The translations under genes were made by a program, and so were the position numbers. From Aquirufa lenticrescens (GTDB lineage: Bacteria > Bacteroidota > Bacteroidia > Cytophagales > Spirosomataceae): a DNA stretch of 64,000 nt. The notes beneath the pieces are model-generated. The model saw only the letters and a list, made by a program, of their open reading frames with translations. It was not told the origin of the DNA and made no database searches. The stretch lies in contig NZ_CP049834.1 in assembly GCF_019916085.1 (NCBI RefSeq), positions 2,246,501 to 2,310,500 of the forward strand, given 5' to 3'. Below are positions 34,337-39,712 of this stretch, piece by piece (the stretch's first letter is position 1; each line of letters starts with the position of its first letter).

Positions 34337-36226
34337 TTATTTTACTTCTTCAAAAGAAACGTCTTCCGCTCCACCATCAGCTGCTGAATCTGCTGATTGA
34401 GTTGCTTCGCCGCCTTCTGCGCCAGCACCTGCCGCATACATCTCTTGAGATGCTGCTGTCCAAGCTGTATTCAATTTTTCTAATCCAGCATCGATACCAG
34501 CTAAATCTTGTGAAGCGTGAGCTACTTTCAATTCTGCCAAAGCACCTTCGATAGCCGTTTTATTTCCTTCCGATAATTTCTCACCGTATTCTTTCAATTG
34601 CTTGTCCGATTGGAAAATCAACGCATCTGCTTGATTGATTTTTTCTACTTTTTCTTTTTCTAATTTATCCGACGCCTCGTTTGCTTTCGCCTCGTTACGC
34701 ATTTTCTCGATATCCTCGTCAGTTAAGCCGCTAGATGCCTCGATACGGATTTTTTGCTCTTTACCTGTTCCTTTGTCTTTGGCAGAAACATTCAAAATAC
34801 CATTCGCATCAATATCGAATGTTACTTCGATTTGAGGTACACCGCGTTGTGCTGGTGGCAAACCATCTAAGTGGAAACGGCCTAATGAACGGTTATCTTT
34901 CGCCATTGGACGCTCACCTTGAAGCACGTTTAATTCTACTGAAGGTTGGTTATCCGCTGCCGTAGAGAATGTCTCAGACTTCTTCGTAGGAATCGTCGTA
35001 TTCGCTTCGATCAATTTCGTGAATACACCACCCATTGTTTCAATACCTAATGAAAGTGGAGTAACGTCTAATAATAACACGTCTTTCACCTCTCCTGTTA
35101 ATACTCCACCTTGGATAGCAGCTCCGATCGCAACTACCTCATCAGGATTTACTCCTTTTGAAGGCTTTTTGCCAAAGAACTTCTCTACTTCCTCCTGAAT
35201 ACGTGGAATACGCGTCGAACCACCTACTAAGATGACCTCATCGATATCAGAGTTTGTATAACCTGCGTTTTTCATCGCACGCTTACAAGGCTCTAATGTA
35301 CGTTGGATTAAGCTATCTGCTAATTGCTCGAATTTCGCTTTTGATAAGGAACGTACTAAGTGCTTCGGGATACCATCTACCGGCATAATGTACGGTAAGT
35401 TGATTTCCGTTGCAGCACTAGAACTCAATTCAATTTTCGCTTTTTCAGCCGCTTCTTTTAAGCGCTGTAAAGCCATTGGATCTTTACGCAAATCGATATT
35501 CTCGTCAGCGATAAATTCTTCTGCTAACCAGTTGATGATTACTTGGTCAAAGTCATCTCCACCTAAGTGTGTATCACCATCTGTTGATTTCACTTCGAAT
35601 ACGCCATCGCCTAATTCAAGTACGGATACGTCAAACGTACCACCACCTAAGTCGAATACCGCAATCTTCATATCCTTTCCACCTTTGTCTACGCCATAAG
35701 CAAGTGCCGCTGCCGTAGGTTCGTTGATGATACGTTTTACTTCTAAACCAGCGATTTGGCCTGCTTCTTTCGTCGCTTGACGCTCTGCATCATTAAAGTA
35801 AGCAGGAACGGTGATAACGGCTTCGGTTACGGTTTGGCCTAAATAATCCTCTGCAGTTTGCTTCATTTTTGTCAAAATCTGCGCAGAAATCTCTTGTGGA
35901 GTATATAAACGATCACCGATGCGAACACGTGGTGTATCATTATTTCCCTGCTCTACCGAGTAAGAAATTGTTTTTAGTTCAGAGCTAACCTCTGAATATT
36001 TTTTACCCATGAATCGCTTCACAGATGAAATCGTATTCTGTGGATTTGTAATCGCTTGTCTTTTCGCAGGATCACCTACTTTACGTTCGCCGTTCTCTAA
36101 AAATGCAACGATCGATGGAGTCGTACGTCTACCTTCTGAGTTTGCAATAACGACTGCCTCGTTCCCTTCCATTACCGCCACACATGAGTTGGTGGTTCCT
36201 AAGTCAATTCCAATAATTTTTCCCAT
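34337..36226 (-). CDS. dnaK: Molecular chaperone DnaK (Hsp70)
   Basis: ATP-dependent chaperone. 629 residues from the ATG at 36226; a longer in-frame start at 36253 would add nine residues absent from the family. Phosphate-1 motif [10 protein letters not shown] at the N-terminus, [16 protein letters not shown] (phosphate-2), [11 protein letters not shown], the [14 protein letters not shown] linker, the substrate-binding beta domain, and a Gly/Ala/Glu-rich tail ending in EDVSFEEVK. No grpE or dnaJ adjacent and no CIRCE element upstream; two palindromes lie between it and the divergent desaturase. Confidence 0.97.
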
Positions 36227-36294
36227 GATTATTTTTAAATATTTTGACAGCATTTATACAAGGAATGTGCCATATGAGATGGCCAAAGGCTTTT

Positions 36295-36357: not shown

Positions 36358-36365
36358 TATATTTG
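36358..36365 (+). promoter_or_regulatory. -7 element of the desaturase promoter
   Basis: TATATTTG matches TAnnTTTG, 21 bases before the ATG at 36387. No TTG box at the usual spacing, which often goes with activator dependence. Confidence 0.55.
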
Positions 36366-36386: not shown

Positions 36387-37385
36387 ATGTCCGAATCAAA
36401 AGATTTTAATTGGGTAGAAGGCCCAGAACCGCACAGAGCGCGTACACGTGCCATTGTGAGAGCGCATCCGGAAGTGAAGAATTTAATCGGAAAGAATCCG
36501 ATGACCTTCGTTTGGATTTTGGCCTGCGTAGGAATGCAGATCGCCATGGCCTATTTCATCAAAGATTATCCATGGTGGGCGATTGTGGGTGTGGCATGGA
36601 TTTTTGGGGCTTTCCCTACGCATACGTTGTTTGTGTGTATACACGAATCAGCGCACAATTTAATTTTCAAAAAGAATTCTTGGAATGTGTTAGCGGGAAT
36701 CATTGCTAACTTCCCTTCCCTATTTCCTACAGCCATTTCCTTCAAAAACTTCCATTTAAAGCACCATGCTTTTCAGGGCGTTCATGAATTAGATGCTGAT
36801 TTACCTGATTATTGGGAGGCTAAATTGATCGATAATTATTTCATCGGTAAGATGATTTGGTTGTTGTTGTTCCCTTTCTTTCAAGGTATTCGTACTATGC
36901 GCTGTATCGAACTAGCGGTGTTTGATCGTCCAGTGATCATGAATATTATCGCTCAAATAGCCTTTGATGCGGTCATTGTTTATTTCTGGGGTTGGTCAGC
37001 ACTAGCCTATATGGGATTAAGCTTCCTATTTTCTGTGGGTTTACATCCACTGGGAGCACGTTGGATTCAGGAGCATTTCTTAGTGTTAGATAAGAACCAA
37101 GAGACTTACTCCTATTATGGTAATTTGAATGGCATTAATATGAATGTTGGTTACCATAATGAACACCATGATATGCCGTCTGTGCCTTGGAATAATTTAC
37201 CAAAGTTAAAGGCAGCCGCTCCTGAGTTTTATGACAACTTAAAGTACCACACTTCTTTTGTGAAGTTATTCTTTACCTTCTTATTTTCTCAAGAACTTGG
37301 TTTATATTCTCGTATTGCACGTAAAGACCGTGATGGGGTGCCATTGACGGATCAATCGATACCAGATATAGAGCTCACTAAGTAA
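36387..37385 (+). CDS. Membrane desaturase of the sphingolipid delta-4 (DEGS) type
   Basis: 332-residue integral membrane di-iron desaturase with three histidine boxes: HESAH (86-90), HLKHH (123-127) and HNEHH (257-261). Hydrophobic spans lie near 41-58, 62-76, 100-118, 153-168 and 186-213. It is not an ordinary acyl desaturase: the N-terminus (FNWVEGPEPH, 7-16, then HPEVKNLIG) and the C-terminal part (ETYSYYGNLN, NVGYHNEHHDMP, FYDNL, YSRI) follow, as I recall it, human DEGS1, which puts the 4,5-trans double bond into dihydroceramide. The length matches too (DEGS1 is 323). So dihydroceramide or a related long-chain base lipid is the likely substrate (inference). Single gene, divergent from dnaK. 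Confidence 0.82.
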   Translation: MSESKDFNWVEGPEPHRARTRAIVRAHPEVKNLIGKNPMTFVWILACVGMQIAMAYFIKDYPWWAIVGVAWIFGAFPTHTLFVCIHESAHNLIFKKNSWNVLAGIIANFPSLFPTAISFKNFHLKHHAFQGVHELDADLPDYWEAKLIDNYFIGKMIWLLLFPFFQGIRTMRCIELAVFDRPVIMNIIAQIAFDAVIVYFWGWSALAYMGLSFLFSVGLHPLGARWIQEHFLVLDKNQETYSYYGNLNGINMNVGYHNEHHDMPSVPWNNLPKLKAAAPEFYDNLKYHTSFVKLFFTFLFSQELGLYSRIARKDRDGVPLTDQSIPDIELTK

Positions 37386-37454
37386 TGGTAAATGGTAAGT
37401 GGTGAATGGTAAATTAAAAATCATTCACCATTTACCATTCATCATTTACCATTC
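37383..37454. repeat. Heptamer repeat array forming an inverted repeat between convergent genes
   Basis: Left half: tandem AATGGTA-type units from the desaturase stop (37383). Right half: CATTYAC-type units, the reverse complement, running to and into the GH65 stop (37442-37444). The halves are about 33 bases each with a short A-rich middle, and can pair with about 80% identity. May act as a bidirectional terminator. Confidence 0.65.
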
Positions 37455-39712
37455 AGTTTGCGTGCTTCCCCATGCACCATCACTGTCAACTCCGGTCCAG
37501 CCAGGTTCGTGATCTCCACTCCCGATTTTTTCACAGCGATGTTTAATTGATTCGCGCGGAAGTTGATTTTGAAGGAGAATTCGTTCCACTGTTTTGGCAA
37601 GAAAGGATTGAAATGCAAAGTGTGATCCTTTAAGCGCATTCCACCAAAACCTTTGATAATCGACATCCAGGTTCCCGCCATACTGGTGATGTGGCAACCA
37701 TCTTCCGTATCGTTATTGTAATCATCTAAGTCTAAACGTGCGGCACGTGTATAGAATTCGTAGGATTTATCTTCTTTACCTAGTTTTGCGGCTAAAATAC
37801 TGTGAACGCAAGGGCTTAATGAAGATTCGTGTACCGTGATGGGTTCATAGAAATTGTAATTGCGCTCTAATTCTTCTAGACTAAAATCGTCTTCAAAGAA
37901 ATAAATTCCTTGCAATACGTCCGCCTGCTTGATGTAGCATGAGCGAAGAATGCGATCCCATGACCATTTTTGGTTGATAGGTCTTTCTGCCGCAATAGTG
38001 TCAACTGGTGCGATTACTTTGTCTAAGAAACCATCTTGTTGCAAATAGATCCCCTGCTTTTCATCGCGTGGGAAATACATGTTTTCGATGATATGCTGGA
38101 ATTGCGCAATTTCCTCTTTTGCAAATGCCGTTGAAGTAATCTTAGCTGCAGCTTCTGCAGGGTAATTCTTTTGAATCTCTGCGTAAACTTCAAGTGTGTA
38201 TTTTAAACACCAAGTGGCAATATAATTAGTATACCAGTTGTTATTTACGTTGTTTTCGTATTCATTAGGGCCAGTAACGCCTAGCATGACGTATTTCTGC
38301 TTGTCTTCTGACCAGTTTACGCGTTGTGCCCAGAAACGCGCGATTCCGACCAACACTTCCCAGCCGTATTCCACTAAATGTTTGCGATCGTCTGTGTAAT
38401 TCACGTAATCCATAATCGCGTAAGCGATGGCACCGTTACGGTGGATTTCTTCAAAAGTGATTTCCCATTCATTATGGCACTCTTCTCCGTTCATCGTCAC
38501 CATTGGATAAAGGGCAGCCCCTTTATTGAAGCCTAGCTTACCTGCGTTTTCAATAGCGCGGTCTAGTTGTTTCCAACGGTAGATTAACAGATTTTTAGAA
38601 ACTTTAGCAGGGGCCGTTCCTAAATAGAATGGAATGCAATAGGCTTCTGTGTCCCAATAAGTTGATCCGCCGTATTTTTCACCGGTAAAGCCTTTAGGTC
38701 CAATATTCAAACGATCATCCTCCCCTGTATAGGTTTGATTCATTTGGAAAATATTGAATCGAATACCTTGTTGCGCGGAAGCGTCACCAGAAATGATGAT
38801 ATCGTTGATGGCCCATTTTTTGGCCCAAGCAGCTGCTTGTTCTTGCAACATTTGCTCAAATCCTTTAGCTGAAATACGTGCTAAGTAATCTATCGCAATC
38901 TTTTCAAAAGAGGCAGTAGGGTGATTCTCTGAGCTGATATTAACCGCATACTTGATGATGGTTAATTTTTCCCCTTGCTTTGCTGATAGCGTGTAAGCAA
39001 GCTCACTGTATTTTTCGCGCGTTGTCGAGGTAGCTTTTGAGTCTACTTTCTGACCATTGGCTAAAATTTCTATTTGTTGAGCTGTAATGACTTCGAAGCC
39101 TGTTTTCTTGGTTTTGGACCAAACAAAATTCGAACCCACTTTTACCTCATCCCAGAATTTCTCATCGTAGTTCGAGTCTTTATTCTTGATGTCTCCATCG
39201 ATAAAGGCTTTCATTTGAATTTCTTCTGTGAAGTTAAGCGGTGTGATAGAATAGGAAATGACACCTGATTCATCATCTGCCATGCTATTTAGGCGAACGG
39301 ATTCGATGGCTAAACGCTTTCCATTGGCTAGGGAGATTTCGCAGGTACGAAGGATATAACCCTCCTTCATGTTCAATTCACGGTAAAATGAATGAATTTC
39401 ACTCGTGTGTAAATCGACCTCTACTCCGCCGATTTGGATAGATAGACCATTCCAGTTAGCGGCATTTAATACTTTGGCAAAATATTCTGGATACCCATTT
39501 TTCCACCAACCTACACGTGTTTTATCTGGATAATAGACGCCCGCTACATAATTTCCTTGAAGGGTTTTACCTGTATAAGTTTCTTCAAATGAACCTCTTT
39601 GCCCCATTCGTCCGTTGCCGAGAGAAAAGATGGATTCGGTGATTTCGTTGTAGGCAGGATGGAATTGGTCTTCAATGACTTTCCATTCATCTATTTTAAG
39701 ATATTGCTTCAT
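37442..39712 (-). CDS. Glycoside hydrolase family 65 phosphorylase, maltose phosphorylase type
   Basis: 756 residues, no signal peptide, so cytoplasmic. GH65 enzymes split alpha-glucosides with phosphate, giving beta-glucose 1-phosphate. Three domains: N-terminal beta-sandwich (SIFSLGNGRMGQRGSFEE), helical barrel with YGGSTYWDTEA (347-357) and the catalytic acid Glu484 in GVTGPNEYENNVNNNW, which fits maltose phosphorylases, then a C-terminal beta layer. pgmB upstream converts the product to glucose 6-phosphate, which supports the assignment; kojibiose or trehalose as substrate is not excluded. The promoter has a -7 at 39743-39750. The last codons (Asn-Gly-Lys-stop) lie within the heptamer array. 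Confidence 0.88.
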   Translation of the reverse strand: MKQYLKIDEWKVIEDQFHPAYNEITESIFSLGNGRMGQRGSFEETYTGKTLQGNYVAGVYYPDKTRVGWWKNGYPEYFAKVLNAANWNGLSIQIGGVEVDLHTSEIHSFYRELNMKEGYILRTCEISLANGKRLAIESVRLNSMADDESGVISYSITPLNFTEEIQMKAFIDGDIKNKDSNYDEKFWDEVKVGSNFVWSKTKKTGFEVITAQQIEILANGQKVDSKATSTTREKYSELAYTLSAKQGEKLTIIKYAVNISSENHPTASFEKIAIDYLARISAKGFEQMLQEQAAAWAKKWAINDIIISGDASAQQGIRFNIFQMNQTYTGEDDRLNIGPKGFTGEKYGGSTYWDTEAYCIPFYLGTAPAKVSKNLLIYRWKQLDRAIENAGKLGFNKGAALYPMVTMNGEECHNEWEITFEEIHRNGAIAYAIMDYVNYTDDRKHLVEYGWEVLVGIARFWAQRVNWSEDKQKYVMLGVTGPNEYENNVNNNWYTNYIATWCLKYTLEVYAEIQKNYPAEAAAKITSTAFAKEEIAQFQHIIENMYFPRDEKQGIYLQQDGFLDKVIAPVDTIAAERPINQKWSWDRILRSCYIKQADVLQGIYFFEDDFSLEELERNYNFYEPITVHESSLSPCVHSILAAKLGKEDKSYEFYTRAARLDLDDYNNDTEDGCHITSMAGTWMSIIKGFGGMRLKDHTLHFNPFLPKQWNEFSFKINFRANQLNIAVKKSGVEITNLAGPELTVMVHGEARKLNGK

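What the first reader, a model, noticed from the sequence alone, without database searches (positions are those of the whole stretch)
36387..37385. Bacterial homologue of the eukaryotic sphingolipid delta-4 desaturase DEGS1
Beyond the three His boxes, the protein keeps DEGS-specific sequence at both ends: FNWVEGPEPH and the HPEVKNLIG-type segment at the N-terminus, then ETYSYYGNLN, NVGYHNEHHDMP, FYDNL and YSRI at the C-terminus. Human DEGS1, as I recall it, has ETYSYYGPLN and NVGYHNEHHDFP at the same places. DEGS1 makes ceramide from dihydroceramide. Many Bacteroidota make saturated dihydroceramides, but 4,5-unsaturated sphingoid bases are seldom reported in bacteria. This gene suggests this organism may make sphingosine-type (or desaturated sulfonolipid) bases.
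Basis: partly seen in the sequence, partly recalled or inferred. Interest (0 to 1): 0.82.

Follow-up and report, generated by a model that had tools for sequence, protein, structure and literature searches.

The report
Bacterial relative of ceramide desaturase DEGS1
A freshwater bacterium carries a relative of the enzyme that puts the double bond into animal ceramides, but its genome looks equipped for sulfur-containing ceramide look-alikes (sulfonolipids) and not for ceramides, so the enzyme probably works on those.

Summary
Window 36387-37385 (+) encodes a 332-aa protein with both Pfam domains of the sphingolipid delta-4 desaturase family (Lipid_DES 49.8 bits, FA_desaturase 84.5). The eight histidines of its three boxes are invariant in 60 homologues. 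The nearest named genome is Aquirufa antheringensis (98%).

The main functional suggestion needs changing. No serine palmitoyltransferase (SPT) was found in this genome. Its only long-chain-base synthase candidate is a cysteate fatty acyltransferase (CFAT: 607 bits to Alistipes SulA, 229 to SPT). In its family 45 of 121 genomes carry the desaturase and 26 of 121 carry SPT, with no overlap; CFAT is in 121 of 121. Yet relatives 67-71% identical sit in an SPT operon in 6 of 80 named loci.

Best reading: a DEGS-family enzyme acting on capnine-based sulfonolipids (inferred, about 0.55). Gaps: no CapA-type cysteate synthase recognised; reductase and N-acyltransferase not searched; no lipid data; desaturation versus hydroxylation undecided; the exclusion pattern is weaker by genus (p 0.029).

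The parts
36387..37385 (+). DEGS-family desaturase gene, 332 aa, stop codon included
   Evidence: ORF and translation; Pfam Lipid_DES + FA_desaturase; dN/dS 0.013; AlphaFold mean pLDDT 91.3
36396..36500 (+). Lipid_DES (PF08557) N-terminal domain, residues 4-38
   Evidence: 60 of 60 aligned homologues match PF08557
36642..36656 (+). His box 1, HESAH, residues 86-90
   Evidence: H86 and H90 invariant in 60 of 60
36753..36767 (+). His box 2, HLKHH, residues 123-127
   Evidence: H123, H126, H127 invariant in 60 of 60
37155..37169 (+). His box 3, HNEHH, residues 257-261
   Evidence: H257, H260, H261 invariant in 60 of 60

Best explanation
The gene encodes a DEGS-family, di-iron, O2-dependent membrane desaturase (family: shown by sequence; metal and O2 use: follow from the family, not tested). 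In this bacterium it most likely takes hydrogens from C4-C5 of the long-chain base of capnine-type sulfonolipids, whose base is made by the genome's CFAT, giving a 4,5-unsaturated, sphingosine-like sulfonolipid. Capnine carries the same 2-amino-3-hydroxy pattern as the dihydroceramide base, with a sulfonate in place of the C1 hydroxyl. Shown: family, no SPT found, CFAT-like gene present, relatives in an SPT operon. Inferred: the substrate, the position of attack, whether it acts before or after N-acylation, and desaturation over hydroxylation.
For: DEGS-diagnostic domains. Only two alpha-oxoamine synthases recognised in the genome, a BioF-like protein and P0002; P0002 scores 607 bits to SulA (7U7H) and 551 to a solved cysteate-C-fatty acyltransferase (28EH) against 229 to SPT; 7U7H is the sulfonolipid enzyme SulA. 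Family: desaturase 45 of 121, SPT 26 of 121, overlap 0, CFAT 121 of 121 (overlap recounted). Order: of 68 desaturase-positive genomes only 2 have SPT over the cut-off (25 tested, 43). Copies 67-71% identical, and inside the same 13-row clade (SH-aLRT 99) as the window protein, lie in an operon with SPT, which ties the subfamily to long-chain-base lipids.
Against: No CapA-type cysteate synthase was recognised among five PF00291 places. CFAT is present in all 121 genomes whether or not the desaturase is, and in about 91 of 98 sampled genomes of the class (my count), so its co-occurrence is no evidence in itself. CFAT and desaturase are about 220 kb apart on the contig, and no CFAT was found within 6 kb of the desaturase in the 80 named loci (61 of 80 have both flanks about whole). 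Ketocapnine reductase and N-acyltransferase were not searched. By genus the exclusion of SPT is only p 0.029 and ancestry is not corrected for. A candidate substrate-marker site failed on held-out genomes. RIF-1, a known sulfonolipid of the order, has a saturated base.
Confidence: 0.55

Rival explanations
1. It is mainly a hydroxylase: the same di-iron site puts a hydroxyl on C4 or C5 of the capnine base, or on the amide-linked fatty acid, of the sulfonolipid.
For: Mammalian DEGS2 makes phytoceramides (stated in PMC11765627, passages). A DesA-family desaturase/hydroxylase of Caulobacter is reported to hydroxylate the amide-linked acyl chain of sphingolipids (PMC11324152, passage). RIF-1 carries a 5-hydroxyl on the base and a 2-hydroxyl on the acyl chain.
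Against: The closest motif match is to DEGS1-type sequence, by recall only; the Caulobacter control genome has no Lipid_DES match, so that hydroxylase is not of this subfamily. In the SPT operon a separate PF04116 hydroxylase sits beside the desaturase. No call separates the two activities.
Confidence: 0.2
2. It is a conventional sphingolipid delta-4 desaturase, and the genome makes ceramides through an SPT that was missed or that lies outside the assembly, or P0002 also accepts serine.
For: Relatives in an SPT operon; 8 of 15 desaturase-positive genomes of the class sample have SPT; the genome is 96.41% complete.
Against: One contig of 2.5 Mb; no SPT match at E<=1e-110 in any of the 45 desaturase-positive genomes of the family; P0002 is far closer to CFAT than to SPT.
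Confidence: 0.12
3. It acts on another lipid, for example the 3-hydroxy acyl chain of an amino-acid lipid, or an ordinary acyl chain.
For: The substrate is not known; the gene is unlinked to CFAT; CFAT is present in the family with or without it.
Against: Lipid_DES is described by Pfam for the sphingolipid branch. The genome has three other FA_desaturase-type proteins, none resembling the recalled DEGS1 (best E 0.018). Close relatives lie in an SPT operon.
Confidence: 0.13

Closest known systems
Sphingolipid delta-4 desaturase family (DEGS1/DES1; Pfam PF08557 + PF00487)
   Same: Both Pfam domains, three His boxes, collinear full-length similarity to recalled DEGS1 (38% over 320 positions).
   Different: Bacterial; no SPT found in the genome, so the usual substrate dihydroceramide is not expected.
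Bacterial sphingolipid operon with SPT and a DEGS gene (Saprospiraceae-type loci L194, L195, L196, L198, L199, L203)
   Same: Desaturase 67-71% identical to the window protein and in the same 13-row clade.
   Different: There it lies beside SPT, a GNAT-family protein, a PF04116 hydroxylase and, in 5 of 6 loci each, an epimerase, an inositol-phosphate synthase and PgpA; in the window it stands alone between dnaK-like and phosphorylase-like genes.
Capnine / sulfonolipid pathway (CFAT/CapB/SulA, CapA, CapC/KCR) of Bacteroidota
   Same: CFAT-like P0002 at 607 bits to SulA; published pathway genes lie scattered in the genome (PMC11211663, part 2 of 5), as here.
   Different: No desaturase of this pathway was seen in the papers found; no CapA-type synthase recognised in this genome.
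RIF-1, rosette-inducing sulfonolipid of Algoriphagus machipongonensis
   Same: A capnine-based lipid modified near C4-C5 of the base (PMC3463246, passages).
   Different: RIF-1's base is saturated with a 5-hydroxyl. No locus titled Algoriphagus is among the 80 named loci kept out of at least 579, which does not show absence.

Membership tests
Sphingolipid delta-4 desaturase family (DEGS / Lipid_DES) | N-terminal Lipid_DES domain | tested here: met
   49.8 bits, cut-off 23, residues 4-38
Sphingolipid delta-4 desaturase family (DEGS / Lipid_DES) | Membrane FA_desaturase domain with three His boxes (HX3H, HX2HH, HX2HH) | tested here: met
   84.5 bits; eight histidines invariant in 60 of 60 homologues; confident model with AlkB- and, weakly, stearoyl-CoA-desaturase-like neighbours
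Sphingolipid delta-4 desaturase family (DEGS / Lipid_DES) | Groups with eukaryotic DEGS apart from other desaturases | tested here: inconclusive
   No eukaryotic sequence was available from a database. Recalled DEGS1: 38% to the window, no significant match to the genome's three other FA_desaturase proteins. In the tree those three are on very long branches.
Sphingolipid delta-4 desaturase family (DEGS / Lipid_DES) | Makes the 4,5 double bond of a sphingoid base | not testable with these tools
   Needs lipid analysis or an enzyme assay
Sphingolipid producer (the organism) | Serine palmitoyltransferase | tested here: not met
   P0002 scores 294 bits on NF047600 (cut-off 640, on a slightly shorter reading of the same gene); no match at E<=1e-110 in G000
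Sulfonolipid (capnine) producer (the organism) | Cysteate fatty acyltransferase (CFAT/SulA/CapB) | tested here: met
   P0002 (G000:C1:2501994-2503229): 607 bits to 7U7H SulA, 551 to 28EH CFAT, 229 to SPT; activity not tested
Sulfonolipid (capnine) producer (the organism) | Cysteate synthase (CapA or archaeal type) | tested here: not met
   Five PF00291 places; the CysM-like L167 scores 195 on CapA NF053679 (cut-off 600) and passes CysM; the other four were judged by eye from their sequence and not scanned
Sulfonolipid (capnine) producer (the organism) | 3-ketocapnine reductase and N-acyltransferase | not tested

The most novel reading that the evidence does not exclude
A branch of the DEGS family in Bacteroidota serves as the delta-4 desaturase of capnine sulfonolipids: one enzyme lineage works on SPT-made sphingolipids in operon-bearing Saprospiraceae-type genomes and on cysteate-derived sulfonolipids in SPT-less Spirosomaceae such as Aquirufa, making sphingosine-like sulfur analogues of ceramide.
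Probability: 0.5. Interest if true: 0.75.

Novelty: new variant of a known kind. Interest (0 to 1): 0.6.

Why it matters
If true, it gives a candidate gene for unsaturated sulfonolipid bases, and shows that a lipid modification usually taught as eukaryotic is common in Bacteroidota: 40 of 395 sampled genomes of the phylum carry the Lipid_DES domain, and a species-level genome collection holds at least 579 confirmed places. Sulfonolipids are reported to act in gliding, inflammation and choanoflagellate development (PMC11211663, part 1 of 5; PMC3463246, passages), so a gene for one of their modifications makes those effects testable by deletion. The SPT operon with a DEGS gene gives a genetic handle on possible bacterial 4,5-unsaturated ceramides, and the family bears on where eukaryotic DEGS came from.

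Tried and rejected
Sphingosine-making reading: not the first choice, because no SPT was found.

Residue pair 141-142 as a substrate marker: picked as the most contrasting position of the alignment, prediction noted before looking, then tested on genomes left out of that alignment. As predicted in 4 of 4 f36 and 3 of 3 f23 genomes, but in only 1 of 3 of f24, the one group where SPT state varies. It follows clade, so it was dropped.

Conserved operon everywhere: no. No alpha-oxoamine synthase within 6 kb in 74 of 80 named loci, though only 61 of 80 have both flanks about whole. None of the operon genes within about 8 kb in 20 further loci of other families, two of them cut by contig ends; the desaturase itself was found in 20 of 20. 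In Aquirufa the neighbourhood is conserved at genus level only.

Viral relatives: 27 pattern matches, none confirmed. Plasmids: no match at E<=1e-20. PDB by sequence: none at E<=0.01. BFVD hits at E<=0.001 are six giant-virus proteins, mostly named fatty-acid desaturases, 13-14% identical.

Literature: 10 searches in the CC-licensed PMC library. In the listings and passages I saw there was no bacterial DEGS homologue and no sulfonolipid desaturase. Not seen at all: the primary papers on Cyclobacterium marinus and Flectobacillus major lipids, flavocristamide A and RIF-2 (met only in reference lists or passing mention). That some of these lipids carry a 4,5 double bond is my recollection only and is not used as evidence.

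Full report
What is there. The window carries one ORF at 36387-37385 (+), 332 aa. It stands alone: a dnaK-like gene lies upstream on the minus strand (34337-36253) and a glycoside-phosphorylase-like gene downstream on the minus strand (37442-39712); both names are by eye. Pfam reports Lipid_DES (residues 4-38, 49.8 bits, cut-off 23) and FA_desaturase (62-284, 84.5 bits, cut-off 29.7). NCBIfam gives only weak matches far below cut-off, to a carotene ketolase (24.5 of 350 bits) and a guanitoxin-pathway hydroxylase (19.2 of 380). Against a human DEGS1 sequence recalled from memory the identity is 38% over 320 positions. The GC of the gene (0.409) equals that of the window (0.407), and the A. antheringensis orthologue gives dN/dS 0.013.

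Which organism. The nearest named locus is Aquirufa antheringensis at 98%. The genome held for the window is a single contig of 2,505,188 bases, completeness 96.41%. PF00487 gives five matches there, two of which appear to lie in one 233-aa reading frame, so the desaturase is one of four such genes. In its genus 9 of 10 sampled genomes carry Lipid_DES.

Pathway check. PF00155 finds 14 places. Read by eye, two are alpha-oxoamine synthases (L013). L007 is best matched by the BioF model, below its cut-off (364 of 426 bits). L008, the same gene as P0002, scores 294 bits on the SPT model NF047600 (cut-off 640). Against solved structures P0002 scores 607 bits to 7U7H, 551 to 28EH (named cysteate-C-fatty acyltransferase) and 229 to SPT 3A2B. 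7U7H is SulA of Alistipes finegoldii, which the authors describe as the first enzyme of sulfonolipid synthesis (PMC9304779, abstract start and passages). So the genome looks equipped for 3-ketocapnine and not for 3-ketosphinganine. A gap remains: of five PF00291 places none was recognised as a cysteate synthase. The CysM-like L167 passes its own model (461 of 413) and scores 195 on the CapA model (cut-off 600); the other four were judged by eye only.

Distribution. In 121 genomes of the family, Lipid_DES is found in 45, SPT in 26, all over the NF047600 cut-off, and a CFAT-like protein in 121, one of them a fragment at a contig end. No genome is in both of the first two lists (recounted). If genomes were independent, no overlap would have probability 7.9e-7; by genera (13 and 7 of 36) it is 0.029. 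Neither corrects for ancestry. In 341 genomes of the order, 68 carry Lipid_DES: 25 were tested for SPT (none) and 43 (two over the cut-off, G254 and G407). G143 and G158 have an SPT-like enzyme at 472 bits, below the cut-off. In 395 genomes of the phylum, 40 carry Lipid_DES. 15 of these are in the window's class: all 15 have a CFAT-like hit at E<=1e-110 and 8 have SPT over the cut-off. The CFAT base rate in the class sample is about 91 of 98 by my count, so that co-occurrence says little. The other 25 fall in four families of other classes: 8 in f43, all with CFAT-like hits of 438-462 bits, and 17 in f36, f54 and f62 with none at that limit. In those 17 the best NF047600 hit is 477-526 bits. 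Six enzymes of this score range, from five of those 17 genomes and from G143, were scanned: NF047600 is the best model for each, below its cut-off. The one compared with solved structures scores 396 bits to SPT, 290 to the next enzyme type and 227 to CFAT. So the desaturase occurs with SPT, with SPT-like enzymes, with both kinds, or with CFAT alone; the window is of the last kind.

Operon. Six of the 80 have an alpha-oxoamine synthase within 6 kb of the desaturase: L194, L195, L196, L198, L199, L203. In L196 the order is S-adenosylhomocysteine hydrolase, PF04116 hydroxylase, an alpha-oxoamine synthase, a GNAT-family protein, an NAD-epimerase, the desaturase, myo-inositol-1-phosphate synthase, PgpA. 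The synthase scores 634 bits on NF047600 in L196 (just below the cut-off of 640) and 647 in L198; the L196 copy scores 508 bits to solved SPT and 227 to CFAT. Hydroxylase, SPT and GNAT protein are kept in 6 of 6; epimerase, inositol-phosphate synthase and PgpA in 5 of 6 each. The GNAT and epimerase genes could be ceramide synthase and reductase (Caulobacter has an N-acyltransferase CerS and a dehydrogenase CerR; PMC11324152, passages); this is inference. These desaturases are 67-71% identical to the window protein. In a quick tree of 65 rows (SH-aLRT only) the 13-row set that holds the window protein, support 99, also holds L194, L196, L198 and L203; L195 and L199 were left out as near-duplicates. 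L203 is titled Thermoanaerobaculia but carries the same operon, so it may be a binning error.

How it probably works. The alignment of 60 homologues keeps all eight His-box histidines, and 60 of 60 match both Pfam domains. The AlphaFold model is confident (mean pLDDT 91.3). Its structural neighbours are one chain each of two chloroplast FtsHi-motor complexes (E about 1e-5), alkane monooxygenase AlkB (E 6e-4) and, weakly, human stearoyl-CoA desaturase (E 0.05). From the family one expects O2- and electron-dependent removal of hydrogens at C4-C5 next to the C3 hydroxyl, or hydroxylation as in DEGS2. With no SPT found, the available 2-amino-3-hydroxy base is capnine, so the product would be a 4,5-unsaturated sulfonolipid base. 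I give this 0.55, a hydroxylase on the same lipid 0.2, a missed SPT and true ceramides 0.12, another lipid 0.13. A residue pair that seemed to mark the substrate failed on held-out genomes and is not used.

What is known. A review says that members of this phylum may make either sphingolipids or sulfonolipids but not both (PMC10191378, passages). Genomes here with both SPT and CFAT-like genes (for example five of five desaturase-positive f23 genomes) suggest this may not hold at the gene level. RIF-1 has a saturated 5-hydroxy capnine base (PMC3463246, passages). In the ten searches listed I saw no bacterial DEGS homologue or sulfonolipid desaturase described; the library leaves out most subscription papers. 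Other papers looked into by passages only: PMC5591296, PMC5155239, PMC11334938, PMC10626005, PMC6148460, PMC7237790, PMC11765627, PMC3528130, PMC9859067; PMC11211663 was read in parts 1 and 2 of 5.

Verdict. The functional interpretation moves from sphingosine to sulfonolipid, as an inference. It is a new variant of a known kind, of good but unproven interest.

Noticed in passing
L109:1495-2439, L110:667-1767, L111:1462-2436 (family f43, another class of the phylum): Desaturases of this unnamed family are closer to recalled human DEGS1 (43-49% identity) than the window protein is (38%), and their genomes hold a CFAT-like gene; they may bear on the origin of eukaryotic DEGS.
   Followed up: partly
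L196:1822-8936 and the like loci L194, L195, L198, L199, L203: An operon with SPT, DEGS-type desaturase, PF04116 hydroxylase, GNAT protein, epimerase, inositol-phosphate synthase and PgpA, suggesting unsaturated inositol-bearing sphingolipids in Saprospiraceae-type bacteria.
   Followed up: partly
L203 (contig JAKLJF010000089.1): A contig titled Thermoanaerobaculia (Acidobacteriota) carries the Saprospiraceae-type operon and a desaturase 71% identical to the window protein; probably a binning error.
   Followed up: no
Genomes G510, G619, G665, G765, G780 (f23) and G447, G502, G657 (f24): SPT over the cut-off and a CFAT-like gene in the same genome, against the statement that sphingolipids and sulfonolipids exclude each other in Bacteroidota.
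   Followed up: no
Window genome G000, five PF00291 places: No CapA-type cysteate synthase recognised although CFAT is universal in the family; the source of cysteate is unexplained.
   Followed up: partly
L051:16115-16954 (G000, about 0.9 kb from the CFAT gene): A gene that looks like a diacylglycerol- or sphingoid-type lipid kinase, with a MaoC-like dehydratase between; names by eye only.
   Followed up: no
Window 36358-36365: TATATTTG, 22 bases before the start codon, fits the TAnnTTTG promoter element of Bacteroidota as I recall it; seen in the sequence, not tested.
   Followed up: no
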